Part shown: positions 1 to 12,157 of the stretch, one piece after another
Layout: each line of letters opens with the position of its first letter
Position numbering within the stretch: the stretch's first letter is position 1
NCBI GenBank assembly: GCA_027014125.1
Contig: JALWEI010000023.1
Span: 1 to 34,184 of the forward strand
Origin: Acidilobaceae archaeon
GTDB taxonomy: Archaea > Thermoproteota > Thermoprotei_A > Sulfolobales > Acidilobaceae
Direction: 5' to 3'
DNA: 34,184 bases
The notes under the pieces: generated by a model
What the model was told of the DNA's origin: nothing
Databases searched by the model: none
What the model saw: the letters and a program-made list of their open reading frames with translations, nothing else
Position numbers and translations under genes: made by a program

Positions 1-2745
1 ACATTGATAAACAATATAACACTGAGAATAGTATACCAGTATAGCAATTATATTAAAAGCGTTATACTACAAACTAATGATACTAGTATTATACTACCCT
101 ATGGGTACTATATGATATCTATTGAGAGGATGGGATACCAGACTATAGCAGTATCTAGAAATATTTCAGAGCCTAACATAAATCTCAACCTTAAGATGAA
201 GCCATTGATGTTAAACATACAATTCAACATATTGTATAATGACAGGATGACGGGTATAGCAAAAGGCGGGGTACCATCGACAACGCTGAAATTGACATTG
301 ATAGATCCGGGAGTCAAAGTAACGTATACTCTATACGGTAACGAAGATGGAATTGCTGTAGGATTAATAAGAGAAGGTATGTATAAGGTAGATGTAGAGG
401 GACCATACATAGAGGCTATAACGTATGAAATATCTGTTAGCAGAGATGGTGGGGCATATACTATATATGTAGAGCCAAAATACGCGATGCTAAATGTTAC
501 GGTTATTGATGCTGAGCTGCCTGTAAGGCTATCGGGCGTCACCTTAACAATATACAGGACAGGACCAGGCGAGGAGGCATCGGTAACAATCACCAGTATA
601 ACAGGTGTTGAACAACTACTCCTGCCGTTGGGAGACTATATTGTAACAGCTGAGATACCATCAAGATACGCGCCTGTAAGTCAAGATGTAAGGTTGATGG
701 GTGACATGTCTGTAACCATACGGGCTGAACCTGTAAAGGTTGCCATCCAAGTACTTGCTGTGACTGATAATGCATACATAGAGTATAAGGGTGTAAAATA
801 TCCGTTACCGCCAGGTATAGTATATAACGCTACAATAAGGTTAATCCCGCTAGACCCCCTGCTAGTATCGCTAGGAGTTAAGCCCATAGAAGTAGCATCT
901 ACCGCAAACTCAACCATAACTATGCAGGGAGTAAGGGCAGGTACATACATGATAGTGGCCATCAAGGACGGTTACATAAGCAAACCAGTCACCGTGCCAA
1001 TACTACAGGGCACTAGCCAAATAGAGGCGCCACTAATCCCAAGACAATGGTCCTGGTCATTCACGCTAAAGGATATAGAAGTCGTAGAGGAGTATGCATA
1101 TATAGATTCAGGCATACTAAAGATAACAACATATAACAATATATCCACAAATATAAACATAAAGTACAATAGCGGAGAACCGATCATAGTGCCAACAGGA
1201 ATATACAATATAACAGCTACTGCAAAAGGATACAATGGAATACCAAAACTTATAACGGTAGAAGCTAGTGGCAACGAGACACTAATGCTGCAAGCATACA
1301 GGGCAGTACTAGAGCTTGACATCATAGCCGACGTGGCGGGAGAAAAGAGACCTGTAGAATTCGGATTCATAGAAGCAATAGCATTAGACGTGCCACTCAA
1401 GACACCAATAATAACATTCAACGTAAGTAACGGTAAAGCTAAACTAGAGGTTAGGCCAGGAACATACCAGTTAGCGTATACAATAACTGGAGGCATAACA
1501 AGGTGGGAGCTCGGAGTATACAACATTACATCCAACTACAGCGAATCAAGGATGATAGAGGTTAAGCCAATCCCAATTAAGATAAAGCTACTCGACAGCG
1601 AGTATAACACAGACATAGAGGAGGCCAGCGTAGTAGTATCGTATCTAGGGCCATTCGGAAGAGGAAGCGAGGAGATAGATAGGTACAGGCCAGGGGTGGC
1701 AGACACAGTACTACTCCCTCCAGGGATAATAGAAGCAAAAGCCAGCGCATATGGATACAACGACCGTACAGTCAGGGCAATGATAGTCTCCGATACAGGC
1801 GAAATAGTAGTATATCTAAACCCGATAACGATACCAATAGTAATATCATTCTCAAACCCGGACGGAGGGGAAGTAAAAGAAGCGATGGATGTGATAATGA
1901 AATCAATGAGTCTACCGGCAGAGTATAGGGGCCAAATAGAGAAGTCAACGGTGTATTTCGGGGAAGTCAGACTCGGTGAATATGAACTAATAGTGAAACC
2001 AAAACTGGAGAATAGCATCTATAACACTACAATAACAACAGTGCAGGTAACTCTAGACGGGGTAAACACGCCCAACATAATAGTCAACTATAAGCTGTTT
2101 AATGTAAGTATAGTGATGATCGACAAGGAGTTGAACAGTCCAATAAAGATACCATATAAAATAACTGTAGATAGAAAAGGAGAGGCATCACAGCAACTAG
2201 GCTTCCCCAAAGAATACGAGGTAACAGGAGAAGCGAACATACTCCTACCACCAGGAGAGTACACCCTAACGATAACACCGGTAGACCTAGACGTGTACAC
2301 GCCGCCGCCTCAAGTGATATTTAAGATACCACAAGTAACTACCGTGAAAATAGACATGCAGCCCAAGAGGTATCCAGTAACAATACTAGTCCTAGACGAC
2401 CGTGGAAGATCGCTAGAGAGCACACTAGTAAAGATCCAGACCGCAGACGGAGTAACAGTAGCGGCGGGCTATACAGACGCTGCTGGGCAATACAGCGCCC
2501 AGCTACGCTACGGAGCATATACCATCACAGCAGAGAAGGTAGGTTACGTGAAAGCGTCAGTAGGCCTACAGGTGCCAGTAGAAACCACCAAAACAATATC
2601 CCTACAGCCAGAGCTAGTAACAAAGATAAAGAGAATGGCCCCACTAATAATAGGGGCAACCGGCCTCCTAGCACTAATGGCAGCAATCTACATAATGAGG
2701 GAGAGGCTAACCAGGAGAATACTAGAAGAGGAGGAATACTTCTAA
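1..2745 (+). CDS. Large repetitive surface protein with C-terminal membrane anchor (5' partial)
   Basis: The reading frame is open from the first base of the window, and no signal peptide is visible, so the start lies outside. About 913 residues are seen. The protein is built from repeated beta-rich modules with a recurring core of the form (L/V)PxGxYxxxAxxxGY, for example around residues 31-46, 205-216, 397-413, 575-592, 750-765 and 833-848. This resembles carboxypeptidase-regulatory-like or PEGA-type beta-sandwich domains. Near the C-terminus a single hydrophobic helix (about 878-898) is followed by a basic then acidic tail (RERLTRR, EEEEYF), which fits an outside-facing protein anchored at its C-terminus. 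NxT/NxS sites are frequent in the first half, fitting archaeal N-glycosylation. The 5' part is more AT-rich than the 3' part. It may be an S-layer-associated, adhesion or transport-scaffold protein; exact function is unknown. Confidence 0.8.
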   Translation, partial: TLINNITLRIVYQYSNYIKSVILQTNDTSIILPYGYYMISIERMGYQTIAVSRNISEPNINLNLKMKPLMLNIQFNILYNDRMTGIAKGGVPSTTLKLTLIDPGVKVTYTLYGNEDGIAVGLIREGMYKVDVEGPYIEAITYEISVSRDGGAYTIYVEPKYAMLNVTVIDAELPVRLSGVTLTIYRTGPGEEASVTITSITGVEQLLLPLGDYIVTAEIPSRYAPVSQDVRLMGDMSVTIRAEPVKVAIQVLAVTDNAYIEYKGVKYPLPPGIVYNATIRLIPLDPLLVSLGVKPIEVASTANSTITMQGVRAGTYMIVAIKDGYISKPVTVPILQGTSQIEAPLIPRQWSWSFTLKDIEVVEEYAYIDSGILKITTYNNISTNINIKYNSGEPIIVPTGIYNITATAKGYNGIPKLITVEASGNETLMLQAYRAVLELDIIADVAGEKRPVEFGFIEAIALDVPLKTPIITFNVSNGKAKLEVRPGTYQLAYTITGGITRWELGVYNITSNYSESRMIEVKPIPIKIKLLDSEYNTDIEEASVVVSYLGPFGRGSEEIDRYRPGVADTVLLPPGIIEAKASAYGYNDRTVRAMIVSDTGEIVVYLNPITIPIVISFSNPDGGEVKEAMDVIMKSMSLPAEYRGQIEKSTVYFGEVRLGEYELIVKPKLENSIYNTTITTVQVTLDGVNTPNIIVNYKLFNVSIVMIDKELNSPIKIPYKITVDRKGEASQQLGFPKEYEVTGEANILLPPGEYTLTITPVDLDVYTPPPQVIFKIPQVTTVKIDMQPKRYPVTILVLDDRGRSLESTLVKIQTADGVTVAAGYTDAAGQYSAQLRYGAYTITAEKVGYVKASVGLQVPVETTKTISLQPELVTKIKRMAPLIIGATGLLALMAAIYIMRERLTRRILEEEEYF

Positions 2746-2757
2746 GCCCAAGCCACA

Positions 2758-2767
2758 GTATTTATAC
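2758..2767 (+). promoter_or_regulatory. TATA box for the 54-aa gene
   Basis: TATTTATA lies right after the surface-protein stop and about 38 nt before the ATG at 2805, which predicts a short leader. The position fits an archaeal TATA element; no mapping data. Confidence 0.45.
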
Positions 2768-2804
2768 CACACACAGCCCGTAGAGGATCCCCCGGGTGGC
2801 CTAT

Positions 2805-2969
2805 ATGGAAGACCTGAAATCCGCAATGGAGAACATGGTGAAGACGGAAGCCGAGAAGAGCCTAGCAGACAAGAAGAGTAGACTAAAAGAACTCTATGAC
2901 AATGTCAAGAAGGATGTGAGGCATAGCTATGAAGAGGTAGTAGACAAGTTCAAGTCAATGGTAAAATAA
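2805..2969 (+). CDS. Small highly charged helical protein, 54 aa
   Basis: An ATG at 2805 opens 54 codons ending TAA at 2969. The protein begins MEDLKSAMENMVK and consists almost wholly of Lys, Glu, Asp and Arg with spaced Leu/Val/Met, as expected for one or two amphipathic helices or a short coiled coil. A TATA-like TTTATA about 40 nt upstream supports transcription. An in-frame GTG at 2796 would add three residues. The 3' end overlaps the end of the convergent DUF131-type gene by 15 nt. No family recognised. It resembles the small charged proteins often found in crenarchaeal genomes, some of which bind nucleic acid, but no binding motif is seen. Confidence 0.6.
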   Translation: MEDLKSAMENMVKTEAEKSLADKKSRLKELYDNVKKDVRHSYEEVVDKFKSMVK

Positions 2970-3191
2970 TATTTTCCTATACAATACTATAGTCAGAATC
3001 ATTAAAATTATGGCTAGGATTAAAACGATTAGCGCGATCCTTCCACTACTACCAAAGACTATAGGGATAGGACCAATAATCACCACACCACCAGCCTCAA
3101 TACTAGACGACTGGCTAGCCTTACCAAGCACGCCAATAAACACTAAAAACACCCCGAGAAATATGAGGACAAACCCGGCAACCACAAGCAT
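2955..3191 (-). CDS. DUF131/TIGR00304-type small membrane protein
   Basis: About 78 residues with two hydrophobic helices: one after the N-terminus (MLVVAGFVLIFLGVFLVF) and one near the C-terminus. They flank a loop containing GGVVIIGPIPIVFGSS, the recognisable signature of the archaeal DUF131 (TIGR00304) family. The frame is open up to a GTG at 3239, but the ATG at 3191 is preferred because GGAGG sits 2-3 nt before it and a TATA-like box lies about 35 nt upstream (around 3224-3232). A start at 3239 would leave no room for that promoter. Function of the family is unknown. The gene is divergent from the SRP RNA and convergent with the 54-aa gene. Confidence 0.75.
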   Translation of the reverse strand: MLVVAGFVLIFLGVFLVFIGVLGKASQSSSIEAGGVVIIGPIPIVFGSSGRIALIVLILAIILMILTIVLYRKILFYH

Positions 3192-3221
3192 ATCCTCCAC
3201 ACTCAACCCAGACCACCAACA

Positions 3222-3234
3222 TAGATAAATCGCC
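3222..3234. promoter_or_regulatory. Shared TATA-like box between DUF131 gene and SRP RNA
   Basis: The AT-rich word GATAAATC is the only good TATA candidate in the short gap. It lies about 26-30 nt before the SRP RNA 5' end on the plus strand and, read as GATTTATC, about 26 nt before the expected start of the leftward DUF131-type transcript. One box may therefore serve both directions. This is inferred from spacing only. Confidence 0.4.
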
Positions 3235-3258
3235 TCCACCAGGAATAATCAAGAAAAC

Positions 3259-3591
3259 GGTGCGCGGGAAGGGCCAGGGGGCTCGCCACCCCCTACGCCC
3301 CACCCTAAGGGGCGTCCCGAAGGCGTAACGCGGGGGCCAGCAACCCAGCTATACCCGATGGGCGACGCGGCGGCAGCCCCAGGCAACGAGGAACCCCGCC
3401 CCGTGGGGTCGGCGGTGCTGGAGGCGCCACCGGAGGGTGGCGTCCTACCAGCATAGCCGGGGAAACCCGGCCAGGCCCGGAAGGGAGCAACCTAGCCCCG
3501 GACGCCGACGTTCACGGGGGTACGGGGCGAGAAGCCTGGGGGCTATACTGCCGCCGCGTGCAGCCCACGGGTATAGCGGGAGCCGCGCACC
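3259..3591 (+). ncRNA. ffs: Archaeal SRP (7S) RNA
   Basis: The ends pair as helix 1: GGTGCGCGG at 3259-3267 with CCGCGCACC at 3583-3591. A long helix 5 is formed by 3346-3385 (GCTATACCCG...GCCCCAGGC) with 3534-3577 (GCCTGGGGGC...CGGGTATAGC). The apical part contains the SRP54-binding helix 8 signature, with GGAAACCCGGCCAGGCCCGG followed by AAGGGAGCAACC (about 3461-3492). The roughly 333-nt size and very high GC fit an archaeal hyperthermophile 7S RNA. It forms the scaffold of the signal recognition particle with SRP19 and SRP54 and directs membrane and secreted proteins to the translocon. End positions are set by helix 1 and could be off by a few bases. Confidence 0.93.
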
Positions 3592-3614
3592 TCCTACCAG
3601 CCAGGTGGGCCTAC

Positions 3615-4055
3615 ATGAGGTACAACAGCGACCCCTGCGGTATCCTCAATAGGCCTGTGAGGGAAATCATGTCGACTCCAGTCATAGTAGCGGGGGAGCA
3701 GGATAGGCTAATGGACGCTGTGAAGGAGATGTACAAGTCAAACGTGGGATCACTTATTATAGTAAACGAAGGGGAGGTGCGGGGTATACTAACGAGAAAG
3801 GATCTAGTATACCTGATAGCAAGCGGCATACTAGAGAAAAACCCGAGGCTAGGAGACGTCATGTCTACAAGCATAGTAACAGCCAGTCCAGACGATACTA
3901 TAGGGGACGTCGCCAAGAGAATGATGGAAACGGGAGTAAGGCACATACCAGTACTAAACAAGGGGGAGGTAACCGGTATAGTAACCATAACAGATATAGC
4001 AAGAAGGATAACAGAAGCCCTACTACATAAATGCAGACCCCAGGGAAACCTTTAA
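3615..4055 (+). CDS. Tandem CBS-domain protein
   Basis: A 146-residue protein made almost only of two CBS motifs. The first begins around residue 14 (VREIMSTPVIV) and ends with GILTRKDLVYLI; the second begins near GDVMSTSIVTA and ends with GIVTITDIARRI. The pair forms a Bateman module that normally binds adenine nucleotides such as AMP, ATP or SAM. No catalytic or DNA-binding domain is attached, so the likely role is as a stand-alone energy or ligand sensor for an unknown partner. The frame stays open upstream to 3558, but that part overlaps the SRP RNA. The ATG at 3615, preceded by AGGTGGG, starts just before the domain and is chosen. The stop at 4053-4055 overlaps the TATA-like box of the following tRNA. 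Confidence 0.88.
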   Translation: MRYNSDPCGILNRPVREIMSTPVIVAGEQDRLMDAVKEMYKSNVGSLIIVNEGEVRGILTRKDLVYLIASGILEKNPRLGDVMSTSIVTASPDDTIGDVAKRMMETGVRHIPVLNKGEVTGIVTITDIARRITEALLHKCRPQGNL

Positions 4056-4059
4056 ACCC
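4049..4059 (+). promoter_or_regulatory. TATA box of tRNA-Ser
   Basis: CCTTTAAACC, centred about 35 nt before the tRNA-Ser 5' end, overlaps the stop codon of the CBS gene. The same 35-nt spacing is seen for tRNA-Leu, which supports both. Confidence 0.5.
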
Positions 4060-4088
4060 CCCAAGGTAGGACAGGTAAACCAACGGAT

Positions 4089-4176
4089 GCCGCGGTCGCC
4101 TAGCCTGGTTAGGGCGCCGGCCTGCTAAGCCGGTGGGGGAGACCCCGCGCGGGTTCAAATCCCGCCCGCGGCGCCA
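4089..4176 (+). tRNA. tRNA-Ser (anticodon GCT)
   Basis: A complete class II cloverleaf. The acceptor pairs GCCGCGG (4089-4095) with CCGCGGC (4166-4172), discriminator G at 4173, CCA encoded at 4174-4176. The anticodon stem is CCGGC/GCCGG with loop CTGCTAA, giving anticodon GCT at 4124-4126. A long variable arm follows (about TGGGGGAGACCCCGC), and the T arm is GCGGG-TTCAAAT-CCCGC. The long arm and G discriminator fit serine. No intron is seen. It forms the left flank of the decayed element. Confidence 0.96.
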
Positions 4177-4305
4177 TACTATATACCCCACAATCGTATT
4201 ACAACGCTGATTCTAGGGAGGCAGACCTAAACTCTCTCATATCTCCTATACGAATGCCACTAACCCTACATGCCATAGGCTATCGTGGTCACAGGGATTC
4301 CGGCC

Positions 4306-4809
4306 ATGAAGATCCTGGAGAGGTTCAGGGGCATTGTGATAGACCCCAGCAGTAGGAGTGTGAGGATAACCAAGCTGGCTAAGCCGATAAATGGCGTCTA
4401 CTACCTCGACGATAAGGGTCGCAAGTATGTGCTGGTAAACAGGGATATGGTAGCGTACAGGGTGGAGGATACCAGGCTAAGCCTAGACTCCGAGCTCCTA
4501 AGGGATCAGGTGATACAGAGGATAGTGCGGGGCGTATCCAGGCCAGGCAGGCAGAGCATGCTAGCTGGCCTGGCATTCTTCGTTGTAGGCCTGCTGGCTG
4601 GCTCCAGCTTCGCCTACGGCTTCTCGGTGGAGGAGCATGGCAAGGCTGCGGCGGAGTGGGAGGGGAAGTATAAGGAGGCTAAGGCCCAGCTCCTGAAGTG
4701 CCAGCAGCAGCTTCAGGAGGCACAGGCAAGGCTCTACCAATACAATAACGCTACAAATAGTAACAATAGTGTTACTAATGTTACAGAAGTTGTAGGGGTG
4801 GGAGGTTGA
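4306..4809 (+). CDS. Element-encoded membrane and coiled-coil protein
   Basis: About 167 residues from the ATG at 4306; an in-frame GTG at 4285 would add seven. The N-terminal 85 residues form a soluble domain rich in beta strands (KILERFRGIVIDPSSRSVRI, VYYLDDKGRKYVLVNRDMV). A single transmembrane helix follows (MLAGLAFFVVGLLAGSSFAYGF), then a coiled coil of about 45 residues rich in Lys, Glu, Ala and Gln (EWEGKYKEAKAQLLKCQQQ), and an Asn/Thr-rich tail. This layout is common among virus and plasmid proteins of crenarchaea, but no family was recognised. The stop overlaps the start of the next ORF, so it probably leads a small operon reading toward the integrase fragment. Confidence 0.6.
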   Translation: MKILERFRGIVIDPSSRSVRITKLAKPINGVYYLDDKGRKYVLVNRDMVAYRVEDTRLSLDSELLRDQVIQRIVRGVSRPGRQSMLAGLAFFVVGLLAGSSFAYGFSVEEHGKAAAEWEGKYKEAKAQLLKCQQQLQEAQARLYQYNNATNSNNSVTNVTEVVGVGG

Positions 4810-5129
4810 GCGAGGCCATAGAGGCCCTGAAGGAGTACATAAGGGAGGCCTTCAAGCTGGCCAGGGAGGCCAAGTACATAAGCGACCCAGCAGAGGCGGC
4901 TGTAAGCCTGGCCCTGGCCAGGGAGGTAGAGAGGCGCTACGGAGTAAGCCTCCTACGGGAGATAGTGGAGCTACAGATCGAGCTTACCCGCTACACCAGG
5001 GCCCCGAGGCCCCTAGTCCTCGAGGCGCTGGAAGCCGCAGGCAGGGGCCTGGAGAGGCAGCGGATCACGACCAACGTGCTCCAGAGCGTTAGGAGGCGTA
5101 GGGTCGAGGAGGAGGAGCCCTGGGGGTAG
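4806..5129 (+). CDS. Small helical protein of the integrated element
   Basis: A 107-residue protein starting at TTG 4806, overlapping the previous stop by four bases and directly preceded by GGAGG. It is nearly all alpha-helical and charged (EALKEYIREAFKLAREAKYI, ERRYGVSLLREIVELQIEL) with a basic then acidic C-terminus (RRRRVEEEEPWG). No recognised domain. The gene ends 5 nt before the ATPase start, so the two are co-transcribed and their products may interact, for example as an adaptor for the ATPase. That is inference from order only. Confidence 0.55.
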   Translation: MSEAIEALKEYIREAFKLAREAKYISDPAEAAVSLALAREVERRYGVSLLREIVELQIELTRYTRAPRPLVLEALEAAGRGLERQRITTNVLQSVRRRRVEEEEPWG

Positions 5130-5134
5130 ATATT

Positions 5135-5452
5135 ATGGGGGGTCCCCAGTCTAGGGAGGAGGCCGAGGCCGCCTGCAAGGCTAGGCTGGAGAGGCAGCGG
5201 GAGGCCCCTACGCTGTTCAGGTACTTCGATGGGATAGCGTCTGGCGTGGAGAGTAGGGTGCACGTTATACTGGGGCAGACTGGTAGTGGCAAGTCCACCC
5301 TGGCCCTGCTATACCTTATGAGGCGGTACGACTGCGACTTGGAGGAGATCTTCGACAGGATCGTGTGGAGGCCCGACCACTTCCTGGAGAAGTACGGCGA
5401 GGGGAGGGATGTGCTTGTGTGGGACGATGCTGGGGTGTGGTTCAGGCGCTAG
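5135..5452 (+). CDS. P-loop ATPase, N-terminal part (broken by frameshift)
   Basis: A 105-residue reading frame from ATG 5135. It carries a clear Walker A motif, GQTGSGKST (about residues 49-57), and a Walker B-like strand, DVLVWDDAGVWF, near its end, then stops at TAG 5450-5452. The continuation of the domain is found one frame back (-1) immediately after this stop, where sequence such as LGKIHWDPLSITLTSIYD follows without any nearby start codon. The two halves together would give an ATPase of about 245 residues, as in the packaging, DNA-transfer or Zot/FtsK-like ATPases of archaeal elements; the exact family is not certain. Either the gene is decayed, or a single-base deletion occurred in assembly, or -1 frameshifting is used; no classical slippery heptamer was seen. 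Confidence 0.6.
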   Translation: MGGPQSREEAEAACKARLERQREAPTLFRYFDGIASGVESRVHVILGQTGSGKSTLALLYLMRRYDCDLEEIFDRIVWRPDHFLEKYGEGRDVLVWDDAGVWFRR

Positions 5453-5871
5453 GGAAGATACACTGGGACCCGCTGAGCATAACGCTGACCAGTATATACG
5501 ACGTGGGGAGGCTCCACGTCCCCCTCGTGTTGATGACTATGGTGAGCGATAGGGACCTGCCCCGCGGGCTGCGATACAACTCCTTCATCTACCGCAGCAG
5601 GACCAGGGTGTGGAGGGCCAGCGAGCCAGGCAGGCAGGCCACCAGGGCGGTGGCTGTTACCCAGTTCAGGAGGGAGAAGCAGGACTGGAGCCAGAGCTAC
5701 TGGGATACTGGCCAGGAGTACGTCTACAAGTTCTACCACTTTAGGGAGGGCGACCCGTTCTACAGGTTGTACCTTGAGACCCGTAGGGGGTATGCTAGGT
5801 TCTTCCTCAGGTATGCCATGAGGAACCTCGAGAGGAGTAGGCTCTACGAGCTCCTACAGCAGCAGGGGTGA
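5365..5871 (+). CDS. P-loop ATPase, C-terminal part (frameshifted continuation)
   Basis: The frame is open from GTG 5365, but residues encoded before about 5445 are out-of-frame shadow of the ATPase N-terminal part. The meaningful part runs from about 5446 to the TGA at 5869-5871. It continues the P-loop domain with LGKIHWDPLSITLTSIYD, a VPLVLMTMVSDRDLPRGLRY segment like a sensor strand, and an Arg/Tyr-rich C-terminal helical region (ETRRGYARFFLRYAMRN). It has no Walker motif of its own and no start codon at the right place, so it is best read as the second half of the preceding ORF. The stop overlaps the GTG of the next small ORF in GTGA. Confidence 0.55.
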   Translation: MEARPLPGEVRRGEGCACVGRCWGVVQALGKIHWDPLSITLTSIYDVGRLHVPLVLMTMVSDRDLPRGLRYNSFIYRSRTRVWRASEPGRQATRAVAVTQFRREKQDWSQSYWDTGQEYVYKFYHFREGDPFYRLYLETRRGYARFFLRYAMRNLERSRLYELLQQQG

Positions 5872-6089
5872 CAGGTGTGCGCTGGAGGCGGAGGGAGAAG
5901 CTCGGGGTGCTGCTAGCACGGCTGCTATCAGCCTCTATAGGAGCCTGGCCTAGGGGGCAGGAGCCCCCTAGGAGGCTAAAACCACCAGCACAGGAGCCTA
6001 GGCCCAGGCAGGATGGCAGGCCCTACATATTCCAGCCTAGGAAGCACAATCACAAGAGGCCCAGGCCCAAGCTTCAACACGGGTTTTGA
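5868..6089 (+). CDS. Small basic Pro/Arg-rich ORF of the element
   Basis: A 73-residue ORF starting at GTG 5868, overlapping the ATPase stop as GTGA. It has a short helical N-terminus (REKLGVLLARLLSASIGAWP) followed by a tail very rich in Pro, Arg, Lys and Gln (RRLKPPAQEPRPRQDGRP). The low-complexity tail suggests an unfolded, nucleic-acid-binding or vestigial product. The ORF ends within the inverted repeat at 6071-6098. No homology recognised; it may be only a degraded gene end. Confidence 0.4.
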   Translation: MTGVRWRRREKLGVLLARLLSASIGAWPRGQEPPRRLKPPAQEPRPRQDGRPYIFQPRKHNHKRPRPKLQHGF

Positions 6090-6132
6090 AGCCGTGTTCA
6101 TGGATTTTTTGAAGCCCATAATGGGTTCATGG
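6071..6132. repeat. Inverted and tandem repeats upstream of the integrase fragment
   Basis: GCTTCAA (6071-6077) is inverted as TTGAAGC (6086-6092). Overlapping this, AACACGG (6076-6082) is inverted as CCGTGTT (6092-6098). A second unit follows: CCCAT-A-ATGGG at 6115-6125 within GAAG...GTTC. Both units share TTGAAGCC at their left and GTTCATGG at their right (6086-6103 and 6109-6132), so they are diverged tandem copies. The position, directly before the integrase fragment start at 6143, suggests operators or recombination arm sites. Confidence 0.55.
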
Positions 6133-6142
6133 TGGTGATACC

Positions 6143-6511
6143 ATGCCTAGCGATGTATTAGAGTGCCTGGGCTATAAGGCTTCAAGACAGGGCTTCAACA
6201 TGTACATCTTCGTTAAAAAGGTTAAGCAGGGAGATAAAACATACTACTATCTGGTAATAGAAGAATACAATCCCGAATCAAAACGTAAGAGGGTGCTCCT
6301 ACACCTGAGCCTCAGGAAGATCCTAGAGTTGTACAAGAATGAGTCAGGGGGCGGGAAGGATTTCCCGTGGTGCGGGGGGTGGGATTTGAACCCACGCAGG
6401 CCTACGCCATCGGGTCCTCAGCCCGACCCCTTTGGCCAGGCTCGGGCACCCCCGCTCCAATGGTTACATATGCCTCGTGGCTGGGCTTTAAATCCTTCTC
6501 TGTGGCTATGA
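6143..6511 (+). CDS. SSV-type integrase, N-terminal fragment int(N), partitioned at tRNA-Leu
   Basis: From ATG 6143, about 70 residues are meaningful: a basic beta-rich N-terminal domain (FVKKVKQGDKTYYYLVIEEY, RVLLHLSLRKILELYKNE). This matches the layout of the N-terminal region of fusellovirus SSV1-type tyrosine recombinases (basic, Tyr-rich strands, then a helix ending LELY-like). The frame then runs antisense through tRNA-Leu and reads GWDLNP; another frame there reads GVGFEP, as SSV1 integrase reads GFEP through its tRNA attachment site. The catalytic Arg/His/Tyr domain is absent, as expected for int(N) after integration splits the gene. Translation after about 6368 is tRNA antisense and chance sequence. 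No matching int(C) is visible in the window. Confidence 0.65.
   Translation: MPSDVLECLGYKASRQGFNMYIFVKKVKQGDKTYYYLVIEEYNPESKRKRVLLHLSLRKILELYKNESGGGKDFPWCGGWDLNPRRPTPSGPQPDPFGQARAPPLQWLHMPRGWALNPSLWL
6368..6455 (-). tRNA. tRNA-Leu (anticodon GAG)
   Basis: On the minus strand a class II tRNA: acceptor GCGGGGG (from 6455) pairs with CCCCCGC (6378-6372), discriminator A at 6371, CCA encoded at 6370-6368. The anticodon stem is TCGGG/CCCGA, loop CTGAGGA, anticodon GAG. A long variable arm and a T arm GTGGG-TTCAAAT-CCCAC are present. No intron. The discriminator A and long arm fit leucine. The gene is the attachment site of the SSV-type element: the integrase fragment enters it from its 3' end on the opposite strand. 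Confidence 0.95.
6486..6496 (-). promoter_or_regulatory. TATA box of tRNA-Leu
   Basis: On the minus strand GGATTTAAAG is centred about 35 nt before the tRNA 5' end at 6455, the same spacing as for tRNA-Ser. It sits just past the stop of the thioredoxin-like gene. Confidence 0.5.
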
Positions 6512-6949
6512 GTACCTTTTGGCTATCTTCAGGAGATCGTCTGCGCCTCGGTATCCCGGTAGGATGGTGGAGTCTACTACCTTGCCGTTAGATACTTTTG
6601 CTATCACCACTGTGGGGGTGGATGTTATGTCCATTTCTATGAAGGTACTAGCAGCAGCGGGTGACGTGCATTGTGATGAGAACCATTCGCATAGCACTAT
6701 GTAGATGTGGAGTGGAGCGTTCAGCTTCTTGTTTGCCAGCTTGGTGAATGCTTCCCATTGTGGAGTGAATATCCTGCACGCGGGGCACTTTATATTATAG
6801 AAGTATATGATGTAAGTTCCGTCCCCATCTTCACCTATAGATAGCGGCCTTCCTTCCCTCCTAACTAGGATCCAGTCCCCATCCTTGTACTTGTATATTC
6901 CATGTGGTGATCCAGGTCCTGGCTTTGGCATGGTGGCCACCCTTGGCAT
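6506..6949 (-). CDS. Thioredoxin-like protein with CPAC active site
   Basis: A 147-residue protein. A thioredoxin-fold core begins around residue 44 with TYIIYFYNIKCPACRIF, giving the redox pair C55/C58 in a CPAC motif. Later TSTPTVVIAK supplies the cis-Pro strand, and the C-terminal GYRGADDLLKIAKRY is the usual final strand and helix. No signal peptide or membrane helix is seen, so it is probably cytoplasmic. Two further cysteines (C88, C94) could form a second pair. The ATG at 6949 is preceded by GGAGG. It is divergent from a VKOR-like protein only 67 nt away, and together they could form a disulfide relay: VKOR oxidised by quinone and this protein as its thiol partner. Glutaredoxin/PDO-like variants are possible. 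Confidence 0.85.
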   Translation of the reverse strand: MPRVATMPKPGPGSPHGIYKYKDGDWILVRREGRPLSIGEDGDGTYIIYFYNIKCPACRIFTPQWEAFTKLANKKLNAPLHIYIVLCEWFSSQCTSPAAASTFIEMDITSTPTVVIAKVSNGKVVDSTILPGYRGADDLLKIAKRYS

Positions 6950-7016
6950 CGTGTCCTCCCTCAGGGTTTAAGTACTGTACATAGCACGCCCCTGGGTATT
7001 GGGGGCCCGGTGGGGT

Positions 7017-7424
7017 ATGTGGAGTGTAGTTGCACTGCTCCTCACCGTAGCAGTCGGCCTAGCCTCCTCTATGGCAGGCTTCTGGGAGTACCGAGCGGGG
7101 GGCGGGGTGTGCGACTTGTCATCGTGGCTTAGCTGTAGCAAGGTTTACTACCTACCGGAGGCTAGGATCGCCGGGATACACCTATCGGAGGCAGCCCCCG
7201 TATACTTTATGCTCCTCTCGGGACTAGCAGCCATATACGGGTTCACAGGATCCAGGAGGAGCCTAGCAGGGCTGACAATAGCAGCGATGGCAGGCTTAGC
7301 TGTTGTCCCCTATCTAGTCTACCTAGAAGTATTCAAGGCCCGCTCCATATGCCTATTCTGCACCTTGATGCATGCATCAATACTATCATGCACACTCCTA
7401 TCATACAAGCTCCTAAAGTCATAG
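7017..7424 (+). CDS. VKOR-family membrane thiol oxidoreductase
   Basis: About 135 residues from ATG 7017; the frame extends to a TTG at 6999, but the ATG follows GGTGGGG and begins the first helix directly. Four hydrophobic helices are visible. The first external loop has two cysteines (C32 and C40 from this start, in GGGVCDLSSWLSCSK), and the CLFC motif (C112/C115) lies at the start of the last helix. This is the vitamin K epoxide reductase pattern. Archaeal and bacterial VKOR homologues pass electrons from a thioredoxin-like partner to quinone and so make protein disulfides. The divergent CPAC protein is a natural candidate partner. A TTTAAG box around 6967 may be its promoter. Confidence 0.85.
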   Translation: MWSVVALLLTVAVGLASSMAGFWEYRAGGGVCDLSSWLSCSKVYYLPEARIAGIHLSEAAPVYFMLLSGLAAIYGFTGSRRSLAGLTIAAMAGLAVVPYLVYLEVFKARSICLFCTLMHASILSCTLLSYKLLKS

Positions 7425-7429
7425 CATAG

Positions 7430-8558
7430 CTAGAAGGGGAGCATGGCTGGTATGGGCTTGTCCAGCCACCCGGTAATCCAGACAATCCTATAGGATGAAT
7501 CCCCTGAGACCAGACGTAGCCTATAGAAGGGGGCATACAGGAAGACGTACTTGTACACGGACCCGCCCAGAGAGGCCTCGATGAAGGAGCCCACGCTGCC
7601 CGGGGAGACCCTAGGCTCCTCCATCCTGCAACCCCTAGAGGGGGTTCTACTACTCCTGGAAAGCACAATATCAGCCAGTGCCTCCAACTCCCCTATGCCA
7701 GGCAGTATATCCTTAACCTCAACTATCAAGGGCCTCCTGCTCCTAGGCTCAACTAGCCCAGAGGCCTTAGCCAGGGAATAGAACCTCCTCCACCTCGACT
7801 CCCCGATCCTGGCAACTACCTCAGCCTTAGAGACAACCTTGCCAGCCAGCTCAGAGTAGAGGCGGAGCATATCTGGAGAGAAGCCAGAGAGCTCGCCAAG
7901 GGCCTCCTCTATCCTACCCCTTCTAAGAACCAGAGGGAGGCCACTGACTGCGGAGGCTACAAGATTCACATCCCTATATCTAGGCTCCCTACCCACCATG
8001 AATCGTGCAGAGATGTAGTAGAGTGGGTGGTAGATGCACTCCTCTAGAACAGGCTTCTCCCTCTTGAGGAAGAGAAGCTTCCTCGCGGCCAGCCTTGACG
8101 CGGCCTTAACAGCCTCCCTCTCGCCTATAACCTTCTCTAGGAAGAGGGCATCCCCCGGGATGCTCGCTATCTCCACCTGCTCCAGGATAGAGTCTAAGTG
8201 GAGGAGCTCGACCTTTAGGGCCTTGGCAACCCTCTCGGCGTCCCGTGTAAAGCCTGAGGCGGAGACGACTATAGCGCCCCTGGCTCCTATATCCTGAGCC
8301 ACTGTAGCAGTCTTGATCACGGTCTCCTTATCAACCTTCTTAGATAGGTTCTTCACCTCGACGATTATCGGTCCCTCATTTGTATCTAGCAACACGTCTA
8401 TCTCGTGGAGGGCCCCACTCCTACCCCTGACCCTCAGATTCCTATACGTAACAAAGCCCCTCAGCTGGCCCCACTTCTCTACGAGGTCCTCAAGCGCCTT
8501 GCCCTTAAGCCTGGGGTCCCCCCTTGTTACCCCGACTCCCCCCGTTTACTGCATCCAC
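7430..8558 (-). CDS. Mrr-like restriction-endonuclease-fold protein (frameshift near start)
   Basis: The clean frame runs from 8545 to the stop at 7430. It includes the nuclease core: helix KALEDLVEKWGQLRGF, then ALHEIDVLLDTNEGPIIVEVKN with the D...ExK catalytic pattern, then GARGAIVVSASGFTRDAE, as in Mrr/RecB-like PD-(D/E)XK enzymes. The C-terminal 200 residues are not recognised. The first usable start in this frame (GTG 8395) would cut off the catalytic Asp. Upstream in this frame there is no ATG, GTG or TTG before a TAA at 8546-8548. A GTG at 8558, one frame away and 24 nt after TATATATAG on the minus strand, would give a leaderless start, joined to the main frame by a one-base shift in one of two G6 runs (8537-8542 or 8518-8523). 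So a homopolymer error, mutation or slippage is likely. Confidence 0.65.
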
Positions 8559-8572
8559 CTATTAGTATCTAT

Positions 8573-8587
8573 ATTACTATATATACA
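8573..8587 (-). promoter_or_regulatory. TATA box of the Mrr-like gene
   Basis: On the minus strand GTATATATAGTAATA is centred about 24 nt before GTG 8558, as expected for a leaderless archaeal transcript starting at that codon. This supports 8558 as the true start despite the frame break downstream. Confidence 0.5.
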
Positions 8588-8588
8588 T

Positions 8589-9455
8589 TCATTCCCCCAG
8601 TATTAGCTCGTAAAACTTATAAAGAGGCCTCTTGAGGTCTTCGGGGGTGAACCCCGTAACACCGTGCTCCGTTACCGCGCCAGAAACCAGATCCCCCTCT
8701 ACACGGTCAAAGAGGTTATACGGTACATCGCCCCACCCCTCTACACGGTAGTAGCGGACCTCTACTTCCACGCTAGAACACCCAAGGCTGGGGTGGATCT
8801 TGAAAGACTCGAACACAGGGATAAATGGTTTTGAGAACCTTGACGCGGCCAGCGCCGCGGCTAGGCTGCCAACCTTGTTAAAGATGCACGGGTCCAAGGT
8901 GACGGCATCGGCTCCGACCATCACAATATCGCTTGACTCCACTATACGGGGTATCATGGAGTCCGGCACCAGGGACACGGGCTTACCGGACCTCCTGAGG
9001 CTCCTGGCGAACTCTATACCCTCGCCTCCAGGCAGGCTCTCCGCCACATATACCATAGAGGGCTTTGAGGCCATAAGAACAGTCTCCACCGCGCTACTAT
9101 AGCTCAGGGTCGCCACACTAGCCCCCTCAGGGACTGCATGCTCACCTACCGTATAGAGCATCCTCCTAGCTTCGTCTATGTACCATAGCACCCTCCTAGC
9201 AATATCCCCCATGCCCCTGCCAGACTTGCAACCCTCACGTAGTAGATTGGCCAGGTTATAGAGGGGCGCCATAGTCCTATTTGCAGACACTATAGACGAT
9301 GCAACCCTATCTATATCCCCACAGGATATAGACCCGGAATCGTGGTCCTCTATAACAGCCCTAGCCAGCCTTGACATGCTCCAGGAAGCGCCCCTAACCC
9401 GTTCCCTCCTAACCTCCTCCACAGCGGCTAGTATATGATTCATAGCTTGCCCCAT
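8589..9455 (-). CDS. eIF2B alpha/beta/delta-family protein
   Basis: A 288-residue protein with a helical N-terminal half and a Rossmann-like C-terminal half. The key segment SSDIVMVGADAVTLDPCIFNKVGS (about residues 185-208) matches the VGADAV...NKxG signature of the eIF2B-related family, which also includes methylthioribose-1-phosphate isomerase and ribose-1,5-bisphosphate isomerase. The usual acidic residue and Gly after VGADAV are changed here to TLDPC, so it may be a diverged member. Substrate cannot be told from sequence: translation-factor-like, R15P isomerase-like or another sugar-phosphate role are all open. Start ATG 9455 or ATG 9443. It is divergent from the membrane protein at 9503. 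Confidence 0.75.
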   Translation of the reverse strand: MGQAMNHILAAVEEVRRERVRGASWSMSRLARAVIEDHDSGSISCGDIDRVASSIVSANRTMAPLYNLANLLREGCKSGRGMGDIARRVLWYIDEARRMLYTVGEHAVPEGASVATLSYSSAVETVLMASKPSMVYVAESLPGGEGIEFARSLRRSGKPVSLVPDSMIPRIVESSDIVMVGADAVTLDPCIFNKVGSLAAALAASRFSKPFIPVFESFKIHPSLGCSSVEVEVRYYRVEGWGDVPYNLFDRVEGDLVSGAVTEHGVTGFTPEDLKRPLYKFYELILGE

Positions 9456-9502
9456 GGTTCAGGGTTATTTACCCGAGAGGGATATTATGTAACCACGACC
9501 CC

Positions 9503-9970
9503 ATGGGTGATGCAGCAGGGATGGTCGAAGTGATAATGCCATTCGCAACCACTATACTCGCAATGATCATATACATGATAGTCATAGTGATCCTAATAAT
9601 ACTGGTAATCAAGGCAACCAGTGGGATGGAGCCAATAGCGGTATATACTGGAGAGCGGAGAGTCCAAGGGGACCCGCGCAGCGTTGTGGATAGCCTAAAG
9701 GTACCCCTAGAAGAAAGGGGGATCCCCTATGAAGACACCGGGGACAGGATCATAGTCAGGGCCCCGCTATCCTACATAGAGGTATATCCCATAACAATGC
9801 CCTCGCCCGCAGTCGGTCTAAAGGTGCTTGTAAAGCCCGCTGGCATAATCATAGCAATAATACTACTCCTACTAGGAGCACTAGGTGTACTCATAGACGT
9901 GATCGGGGCCCTGATGATCTACGATAGATACAGCAAAGTAGCCAAGCTGGTAGAGGAGCTAAGGATGTAG
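9503..9970 (+). CDS. Two-helix membrane protein of unknown function
   Basis: A 155-residue protein. A long N-terminal transmembrane helix (about residues 12-38) is followed by a soluble domain of about 70 residues with predicted strands and helices (DPRSVVDSLKVPLEERGIPY, DRIIVRAPLSYIEVYP), then a second helix (about 112-140) and a basic C-terminal tail. With an even number of helices, the soluble loop faces the other side from both tails. No family recognised. It ends 46 nt before pyrF, separated from it by a good TATA box, so it is probably not part of the pyr operon. Confidence 0.6.
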   Translation: MGDAAGMVEVIMPFATTILAMIIYMIVIVILIILVIKATSGMEPIAVYTGERRVQGDPRSVVDSLKVPLEERGIPYEDTGDRIIVRAPLSYIEVYPITMPSPAVGLKVLVKPAGIIIAIILLLLGALGVLIDVIGALMIYDRYSKVAKLVEELRM

Positions 9971-9973
9971 CCA

Positions 9974-9984
9974 CCCTTATAAGC
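9974..9984 (+). promoter_or_regulatory. TATA box of the pyrFEBI operon
   Basis: CTTATAAG at 9976-9983 lies 34-40 nt before the pyrF GTG at 10017, allowing transcription to start about 10 nt ahead of the gene. Confidence 0.55.
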
Positions 9985-10016
9985 CCCCCGGCTCCTAGCC
10001 CAGATCAGGGCGGCGA

Positions 10017-10667
10017 GTGGCGCTAATAGTAGCGGTGGACAAGCCGCTAAGCATTACCACGATCCAGGGCATATGCAGGGAGGCAGACGGGATCAAGACA
10101 GGCCTCCCAACACTGGTAGAGGCAGGAACTAGGTGGATGCTAGACGCAGCTAAGGCGTGTAAGGGAATAAGGGTCCTAGACCTAAAGCTAGCTGATATAG
10201 GGCCAGTCATGGTTAGGACTGTGGAGCCATTCCTTGGAGTATACGATACGTTCATCGCCCACTCCTTCGTAGGTAGCAAGGGCGCGCTAGAAGACCTGAA
10301 GAACGAAGTAGAGAGGGTTGGCGGTAGGCTAGTGCTCGTGGCATCAATGAGCCATCCCGGAGCCACTGAGGTCTACGATGAATCGGCTAGGCATATACTG
10401 AGCGTAATCGATAAGGTAGATCCATGGGGCCTAGTAGCGCCAGCCACAAGGCCACAGATCATAGAAATGCTAAGGAGAAGATACCCCAGAAAGGCTATAC
10501 TATCGCCGGGCATAGGGGCTCAAGGAGCCAAGCCGGGAGAAGCCCTATGCGCAGGGGCATCATATGAGATAGTGGGCAGGAGGATCACAGGTAGCCCCGA
10601 CCCAGTCGGAGAGGCAAGGAGGGTGAGGGTGGAGCAATATGAAAAGCTATCCAACTGCAAACCCTGA
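10017..10667 (+). CDS. pyrF: Orotidine 5'-phosphate decarboxylase
   Basis: A 216-residue protein that decarboxylates OMP to UMP, the last step of de novo UMP synthesis. The TIM-barrel landmarks are in order: AVD (D8), GIKTGLP (K27), the catalytic DLKLADI motif (D55, K57, D60), AHSFVG, the STSM-like VASMSHPGA and the phosphate-binding ILSPGIGAQGAKPGEAL near the C-terminus, followed by GRRITGSPDP. Length fits the archaeal family. The GTG start at 10017 places residues directly before the first strand. It leads an operon with pyrE (29-nt overlap), pyrB and pyrI, preceded by a TATA box at 9976-9983. Confidence 0.95.
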   Translation: MALIVAVDKPLSITTIQGICREADGIKTGLPTLVEAGTRWMLDAAKACKGIRVLDLKLADIGPVMVRTVEPFLGVYDTFIAHSFVGSKGALEDLKNEVERVGGRLVLVASMSHPGATEVYDESARHILSVIDKVDPWGLVAPATRPQIIEMLRRRYPRKAILSPGIGAQGAKPGEALCAGASYEIVGRRITGSPDPVGEARRVRVEQYEKLSNCKP

Positions 10668-11250
10668 AGATATACTACTGGAAATAGGATCGGTCAAGCT
10701 AGGCAGGTTCAAGCTATCCAGCGGCAGAGAGAGCAGCATATACGTGGACCTAAGAGTAGCGACCTTCAAGCCCAGCCACTTCAAAGCCCTACTAGGCATG
10801 GCCGCCAGCATAGTAGAGGGGCTAGGAGTAGACGCCATCGCAGGGGTAGCCACAGGGGGAATACCATGGTCCACAGGAATAGGCATCATACTATCCATGC
10901 CATCAACGTACGTCAGACCCAGGGAGAAGGGACACGGGACCTCAAGGAGGGTTGAAGCAGACGTTGAAGGCCTAAGAGTTGCGGTAATCGACGATGTAGC
11001 CACTACAGGCTCCAGCCTGCTAGGAGCAATAGAGGCCCTCAGACTAAGCGGGGCTACCGTAGAGCATGCTGTAGTGGTCGTGGAGAGGGGTAGCGAAGCA
11101 AGGAGGAGGCTAGCCAGGGCTGGAGTAAGGCTCTACAGCATAACAACCCTAGAGAGGATCATAGACAGGCTAGAGGAGACCGGGAAATATAGCCCCCAGC
11201 TGATCCGGGAAGCCAGGAGGGAGGTTACAGGCAATGACATGGAAGGGTAG
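10639..11250 (+). CDS. pyrE: Orotate phosphoribosyltransferase
   Basis: A 203-residue type I phosphoribosyltransferase that joins orotate and PRPP to give OMP. It has the N-terminal hood with [20 protein letters not shown], the flexible catalytic loop REKGHGTSR (about 95-103), and the PRPP-binding motif [14 protein letters not shown] at 113-126. The start ATG 10639 lies inside the end of pyrF (29-nt overlap), and the stop lies 17 nt inside pyrB, so translation of pyrF, pyrE and pyrB is probably coupled. Product feeds the PyrF decarboxylase. Confidence 0.95.
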
Positions 11251-12157
11251 AAGCATAGTAAGCATACTAGACTTCAAGCGCAGCGAGCTAGAGGAGCTAT
11301 TCCGGGAGGCACGCATTATGGAGGAGCAGCTATCCAAGGGGAAAGTTGAGAAGATACTCAGCGATAGGATAGTGGCAATGGCGTTCTTCGAGCCCTCCAC
11401 CAGGACAAGGCTGAGCTTTGAAACCGCAGCCAAGAGGCTAGGGGCTAGCGTGATCGGCTTCACAGGCGAGGAGGCGATCAGCGTAGCCAAGGGGGAGAAC
11501 CTCGCAGACACCATAAGGATGCTAAGCTCATACGCCGACCTCATAGTGCTCAGGCACCGCTACGAGGGAGCCGCACTATACGCCTCCAAGGTATCCAGCG
11601 TTCCAGTGATAAACGGCGGAGACGGGAGACAACACCACCCGACCCAGGCGATGCTAGACCTCTACACCGTGGCAAGAGAACTAGGCCGGATCGACGGGCT
11701 CGTCTACGGGGTGCTAGGAGACCTTAGATACGGCAGGGCGGCAGCGAGCTTCATACTCGGCCTAACAAGGTTCAATCCAAGGAAGGTCTATCTAATATCG
11801 CCTCCCAACCTGGGCCTGAGGAGGGAGGTCAGGATGATTGTAGAGGAGCAGGGCCTGCCCGTCGAGGAGGCTAGCCTGGAGGAGGTGGTGGGCGAGCTTG
11901 ATGTGCTGTACGTAACCAGGGTACAGAAGGAGAGATTCCCCGACCCCGAGGAGTACGAGAGGGTCAAGGGCGCATACAGGATAACACCCTCTATACTAGA
12001 GGGCGCAAAGGAGAGCATGATCATAATGCACCCACTGCCAAGAGTAGATGAGATAGACCACCGGGTAGACTCTACCAGGCACGCGAGGTACTTCAAACAA
12101 GCCGCTTACGGGATTCCAGTCAGGATGGCAATCCTCAAGTTAGTCCTAGCGGGGTGA
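11234..12157 (+). CDS. pyrB: Aspartate carbamoyltransferase catalytic chain
   Basis: A 307-residue enzyme that makes carbamoyl-aspartate from carbamoyl phosphate and aspartate. The carbamoyl-phosphate site [13 protein letters not shown] is at 51-63, the mobile-loop Lys at K86 (SVAKGE), HPTQ at 135-138, and the aspartate-binding HPLPR segment near residue 261. Length equals that of typical catalytic chains. It overlaps pyrE by 17 nt and is followed after 4 nt by pyrI, so an allosteric PyrB-PyrI holoenzyme of the E. coli type is expected. Confidence 0.97.

What the first reader, a model, noticed from the sequence alone, without database searches (positions are those of the whole stretch)
6143..6455. 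Partitioned SSV-type integrase fragment reading antisense into tRNA-Leu(GAG)
Seen: a basic, Tyr-rich N-terminal domain of about 70 residues runs straight into the 3' end of an intact tRNA-Leu on the other strand and reads DLNP (GFEP in another frame) across the T arm. Known: SSV1-type integrases carry their attachment site inside the gene, encode GFEP across a tRNA, and are split on integration into int(N) and int(C). Inference: a fusellovirus-like element integrated at tRNA-Leu(GAG).
Basis: partly seen in the sequence, partly recalled or inferred. Interest (0 to 1): 0.7.

Follow-up and report, generated by a model that had tools for sequence, protein, structure and literature searches.

The report
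Relic of an archaeal virus integrase
Next to a leucine tRNA gene of a heat-loving archaeon lies the front part of a virus integrase that was cut in two when the virus inserted itself; it is a decayed relative of a known ovoid virus of Aeropyrum, and close kin sit at all five leucine tRNA genes across this archaeal family.

Summary
ORF 6143-6511 (+) has a 75-residue N-terminal domain that runs antisense through an intact tRNA-Leu(GAG) (6368-6455, -), reading WCGGWDLNPRRPTPSGPQPD. It is an int(N) fragment of an SSV-type ('suicidal') tyrosine integrase. [quoted passage not shown] The gene two upstream (5135-5868, frameshifted) matches the APOV1 DnaA-like ATPase, in the same order and direction. 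The element is therefore guttavirus-like rather than fusellovirus-like in the strict sense.

It is a one-sided relic: no second att site or int(C) partner was found in the genome for this copy. Two other tRNA-Leu genes of the genome carry elements with both att copies (UAG and CAG). One of these has a nearly identical int(N) (6 substitutions in 75 codons, 5 synonymous). So two related, once functional integrases used two different isoacceptor genes.

Across the host family the same int(N) family abuts all five tRNA-Leu isoacceptors and changes isoacceptor often on its tree. Two of eleven att pairs differ exactly at the anticodon wobble base. The kind is known; breadth and wobble mismatches are modest extensions.

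The parts
6143..6367 (+). int(N): N-terminal domain (75 aa) of an SSV-type tyrosine integrase; ORF continues to 6511
   Evidence: 45% identity to APOV1 integrase, E=2e-14; 97.7% nt identity over 385 bp to a second copy on contig C10; dN/dS ~0.05
6368..6428 (-). att core (3' part of the tRNA incl. anticodon arm), read as WCGGWDLNPRRPTPSGPQPD by int
   Evidence: extent inferred from paired att copies of sister elements (61 bp identical in the GAG element L058)
6368..6455 (-). intact tRNA-Leu(GAG), integration target
   Evidence: ARAGORN, Rfam RF00005
5868..6089 (+). small basic ORF (73 aa) at the position of APOV1 orf20
   Evidence: position only; no sequence match
5135..5871 (+). DnaA-like P-loop ATPase, frameshifted near 5440-5443 (ORFs 5135-5452 and 5365-5871)
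   Evidence: APOV1 orf19: 38.6% over 70 aa and 30% over 123 aa in adjacent frames; hhalign E=1e-20 to orf19 profile; phrog_5484
4806..5129 (+). ORF 107 aa, probable element gene at the position of APOV1 orf18
   Evidence: position and direction only; profile comparison negative
4285..4809 (+). ORF 174 aa (membrane/coiled-coil-like by eye), probable element gene at the position of APOV1 orf17; left border of the relic lies somewhere between 4177 and 4285
   Evidence: position only; profile comparison negative
6456..12000 (.). host flank on the tRNA 5' side (thioredoxin-like, VKOR-like and further genes)
   Evidence: 77% nt identity, colinear with same-genus contig G002:C58 from 6367 to 12000

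Best explanation
This is a decayed, one-sided provirus relic of a guttavirus-like (APOV1-like) circular element. Its SSV-type integrase gene carries attP inside the gene as a copy of the 3' part of tRNA-Leu. Integrase-mediated recombination between attP and tRNA-Leu(GAG) split the gene: int(N) stayed next to the restored tRNA, and int(C) with the second att went to the far end. The far end was later lost here, leaving the int(N)-proximal genes (ATPase, now frameshifted). The split integrase is presumed inactive. Related elements of this family use all five tRNA-Leu isoacceptor genes and switch between them. Shown: homology, gene order, junction at the tRNA, paired att sites in sister elements. 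Inferred: the recombination event itself, the loss of the far end, and inactivity.
For: int(N) and ATPase homologous and in the same order and direction as in APOV1. APOV1 is integrated in tRNA-Leu (PMC5882108). Same genome: C22 element with tRNA-Leu(CAG)+int(N) and a second 61-bp att followed by a broken int(C) (Pfam PF16795, 3e-19); C10 element with tRNA-Leu(UAG)+int(N) and a second 60-bp att inside an intact integrase ORF. That integrase matches the three PDB 'probable integrase' chains 3UXU, 3VCF and 4DKS (SSV1 Int, from general knowledge) at E=5e-21 to 1.5e-20. Same-genus G002 sequence stops being similar at the tRNA 3' end. The int(N) family adjoins tRNA-Leu in many family members. G015 carries an APOV1-like provirus in tRNA-Leu(UAA) with a 64-bp att pair as a positive control.
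Against: No second att or int(C) was found for this copy on the left or elsewhere in the 47-contig assembly. Genes at 4285-5129 and 5868-6089 have no detectable similarity to APOV1 orf17, 18 and 20. No empty orthologous site with both flanks was found: the G002 contig ends 80 bp past the tRNA and carries another int(N) remnant.
Confidence: 0.9

Rival explanations
1. Relic of a fusellovirus proper (spindle-shaped virus).
For: The catalytic part of a sister integrase in the same genome resembles the SSV1-type PDB chains more strongly (E=5e-21) than the APOV1 one does (2e-6). PHROG 5484 for the ATPase is a generic DnaA-like family. APOV1 is itself reported as linked to fuselloviruses (PMC5882108).
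Against: N domain not detectably similar to SSV1 int(N) (hhalign probability 1%); different translation frame over att; ATPase is upstream of and codirectional with int as in APOV1, whereas the SSV1 DnaA-like gene is on the other strand beyond the C-terminal end; phage-collection hits with support are APOV1 only.
Confidence: 0.12
2. Capsid-less integrative plasmid that merely shares the integrase and ATPase module.
For: No structural gene is left in the window relic; integrases of this kind occur on plasmids as well (PMC8371274).
Against: Closest gene order is viral (APOV1); L075 and L072 show that APOV1-like proviruses occur in the host family. Cannot be excluded for this truncated copy.
Confidence: 0.2
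3. Post-integration copying: the int(N)+tRNA blocks at GAG (window) and UAG (C10) are duplicates of one another by gene conversion rather than two integrations.
For: 97.7% identity over 385 bp, ending at the 5' end of the tRNA, with unrelated DNA on both sides.
Against: Of 6 differences in the 75 codons 5 are synonymous (dN/dS ~0.05), which points to divergence while the integrase was functional; the anticodons differ.
Confidence: 0.15
4. Chance open frame antisense to a tRNA.
For: Antisense tRNA frames are often open; frame length alone is only moderately improbable (12 of 2000 shuffles).
Against: Homology E=2e-14 to a viral integrase and tens of homologues at tRNA-Leu genes.
Confidence: 0.005

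Closest known systems
[quoted passage not shown]
   Same: int(N) 45% identical; DnaA-like ATPase homologous and in the same order and direction; DLNP frame over att; tRNA-Leu as target
   Different: Window copy is a relic without int(C), second att or structural genes; target is the GAG instead of the UAA isoacceptor; three small ORFs not detectably related
SSV1 and other fuselloviruses (SSV-type integrase prototype)
   Same: att inside int, gene split on integration, target in the 3' part of a tRNA gene; family catalytic domain PF16795 matches PDB 3UXU/3VCF/4DKS
   Different: N domain not detectably homologous; T arm read as GFEP in SSV1 and DLNP here; gene order around int differs
Suicidal integrases of pT26-2-type plasmids (Badel et al., reviewed in PMC8371274)
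   Same: One integrase family spread over many tRNA genes, with target switching reported as restricted within tRNA classes with or without a supplementary loop
   Different: Hosts are mainly Thermococcales there; here only tRNA-Leu genes (long variable arm) were found for this int(N) family, all five isoacceptors, in Acidilobaceae

Membership tests
SSV-type (suicidal) tyrosine integrase | Gene translates through a tRNA-derived att site | tested here: met
   frame open through tRNA-Leu; intact homologues L006 10957-12018 and APOV1
SSV-type (suicidal) tyrosine integrase | Gene partitioned into int(N) and int(C) flanking the element with two att copies | tested here: inconclusive
   met for the sister element on C22 and in relatives; for the window copy only int(N) is present
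SSV-type (suicidal) tyrosine integrase | C-terminal PF16795 catalytic domain with the tyrosine-recombinase active-site residues | tested here: inconclusive
   absent from the window fragment by its nature; present in the intact sister integrase, conserved R and Y columns
Guttaviridae / Betaguttavirus | Integrase and DnaA-like ATPase homologous and colinear with APOV1 | tested here: met
Guttaviridae / Betaguttavirus | APOV1-like structural genes, ovoid virion | tested here: not met
   no APOV1 orf1-orf18 homologue detected in the window; the relic is therefore called guttavirus-like, not a member
Fuselloviridae | int(N) homologous to SSV1 int(N); SSV gene order | tested here: not met

The most novel reading that the evidence does not exclude
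A family of self-splitting integrases in Acidilobaceae treats the five tRNA-Leu isoacceptor genes as interchangeable targets. An incoming attP carrying one anticodon can recombine with a tRNA-Leu gene bearing another, with the host's own wobble base kept in the restored tRNA and the foreign one left in the far att; tandem insertion can rebuild an intact integrase with a new int(N).
Probability: 0.4. Interest if true: 0.5.

Novelty: new member of a known kind. Interest (0 to 1): 0.35.

Why it matters
It extends guttavirus-like integration, known from one cultivated virus with a sequenced genome, to much of an archaeal family. The many natural int(N)/att pairs at five near-identical tRNA genes form a ready series for testing how self-splitting integrases change target without damaging the tRNA, a process that the review PMC8371274 calls not fully understood.

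Tried and rejected
Pfam and PHROGs scans of the 75-residue domain: no meaningful family. Fold prediction of the N domain (pLDDT 76, four strands plus one helix) and PDB fold search: best match E=0.2, so no domain assignment. A genome-contig scan gave three MAG loci, two titled Acidilobaceae and one Desulfurococcales. Attempts to find the left junction: a DNA search with window 1-4280 found only tRNA-Ser, SRP RNA and weak matches in relatives. The idea that the G002 contig showed an empty site was dropped after its last 80 bp proved to hold the end of a different int(N). The C29 int(C) was considered as the missing partner and rejected: its att matches a tRNA-Glu-like sequence.

Full report
Observation. 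The ORF 6143-6511 (+) has 75 codons before the 3' end of an intact tRNA-Leu(GAG) at 6368-6455 (-) and reads WCGGWDLNPRRPTPSGPQPD through it. The frame alone is moderately unlikely by chance (12 of 2000 shuffles); homology settles it.

Identity. tblastn against phage records gives APOV1 (NC_028256, Betaguttavirus) at 45% identity, E=2e-14, in a gene annotated as a putative SSV-type integrase. Upstream, ORFs 5135-5452 and 5365-5871 are the two halves of a DnaA-like ATPase split by a frameshift around 5440-5443; both match APOV1 orf19 (hhalign E=1e-20). ATPase, a small ORF, then int(N), all codirectional, is the APOV1 order. SSV1 has its DnaA-like gene on the opposite strand past the other end of int. 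The ORFs at 4285-4809, 4806-5129 and 5868-6089 sit where APOV1 has orf17, orf18 and orf20 but show no similarity; that correspondence is by position only. ICTV's profile states that APOV1 is a provirus in tRNA-Leu (PMC5882108).

Integration. Same-genus contig G002:C58 is colinear with the window from 12000 to 6367, 77% identical, and similarity ends at the 3' end of the tRNA. The 80 bp left on that contig contain a decayed end of a different int(N) class, resembling the one on C22 (FNIGVEGVGWCGGW), so this tRNA has apparently been used by different elements in the genus. No far att or int(C) for the window copy was found in the window or the genome; the left border is not resolved and lies between tRNA-Ser (ends 4176) and 4285.

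Sister elements in the same genome. C22 (L007): tRNA-Leu(CAG), int(N), and 4.9 kb away a second att followed by a broken int(C). C10 (L006): tRNA-Leu(UAG), int(N) 97.7% identical to the window over 385 bp, and 9 kb away a second att lying inside an intact 353-aa integrase ORF. That ORF matches PF16795 (5e-26) and PDB chains 3UXU/3VCF/4DKS (E=5e-21 to 1.5e-20). An intact integrase at the far att is most simply read as a tandem arrangement in which the int(C) of the inner element is fused to the int(N) of an outer one. By identity the int(C) groups with elements whose int(N) is like the outer type, so the modules have probably been exchanged at some point; the order of events is not resolved. 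The window and C10 int(N) differ at 6 sites in 75 codons, 5 synonymous, which favours two separate integrations of sister, then functional, integrases.

Family-wide pattern. In the host family (relatives titled Acidilobaceae or Desulfurococcales archaeon) int(N) relatives adjoin tRNA-Leu of all five isoacceptors. On a tree of N domains without the tRNA part the isoacceptor label needs 15 changes (least possible 4, shuffled mean 18.2), although most inner branches are weak. Of 11 att pairs, 9 have the same anticodon on both sides; L007 (tRNA CAG, far att GAG) and L062 (tRNA CAG, far att UAG) differ at the wobble base. Two of 8 mismatches in about 650 compared positions fall on 11 wobble positions, which I estimate at p of about 0.007 by hand; it was noticed after the fact, and both far copies carry other mutations, so ordinary mutation remains possible. 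Published precedent: target switching among tRNA genes by suicidal integrases, and related integrases using two tRNA-Glu genes that differ by one nucleotide (PMC8371274).

Verdict. A guttavirus-like, SSV-type int(N) relic: real, well explained, new as a locus but of a known kind.

Noticed in passing
L006 10957-12018 (-), with att 11755-11815 (own genome contig C10): Intact 353-aa SSV-type integrase ORF spanning a second tRNA-Leu(UAG)-type att, although a separate int(N) already abuts the tRNA; tandem insertion may have rebuilt a full-length, possibly chimeric, integrase.
   Followed up: partly
L075 2482-16756 (G011:C28): Near-complete APOV1-like provirus in tRNA-Leu(UAA), with relatives of 14 of the 21 APOV1 ORFs and both att copies; L072 (G002:C160) is a partial one.
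   Followed up: partly
L154 12725-13520 (own genome contig C29): Another PF16795-type int(C)-like ORF, 39-43% identical to the C10 one, preceded by a tRNA-Glu-like att: a fourth element of related type at a different tRNA.
   Followed up: partly
L007 7902-7962 and L062 14611-14655: Far att copies whose wobble base differs from that of the tRNA-Leu(CAG) at the other end of the element (GAG and UAG instead).
   Followed up: partly
window 4144-4176 and 6368-6400: The relic lies between two tRNA genes, tRNA-Ser(GCT) and tRNA-Leu(GAG), whose similar 3' ends face each other as a 33-nt inverted repeat (82%).
   Followed up: no
window 3261-3589 (+): Archaeal SRP RNA gene (Rfam RF01857); the start of a CBS-domain ORF (3558) overlaps its 3' end, so that start codon is doubtful.
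   Followed up: no
window 6070-6140: Short inverted repeats just upstream of int(N) (TTCAACACGGGTTTTGAAGCCGTGTTCATGG and similar), shared with C10; could be integrase or regulator binding sites.
   Followed up: no
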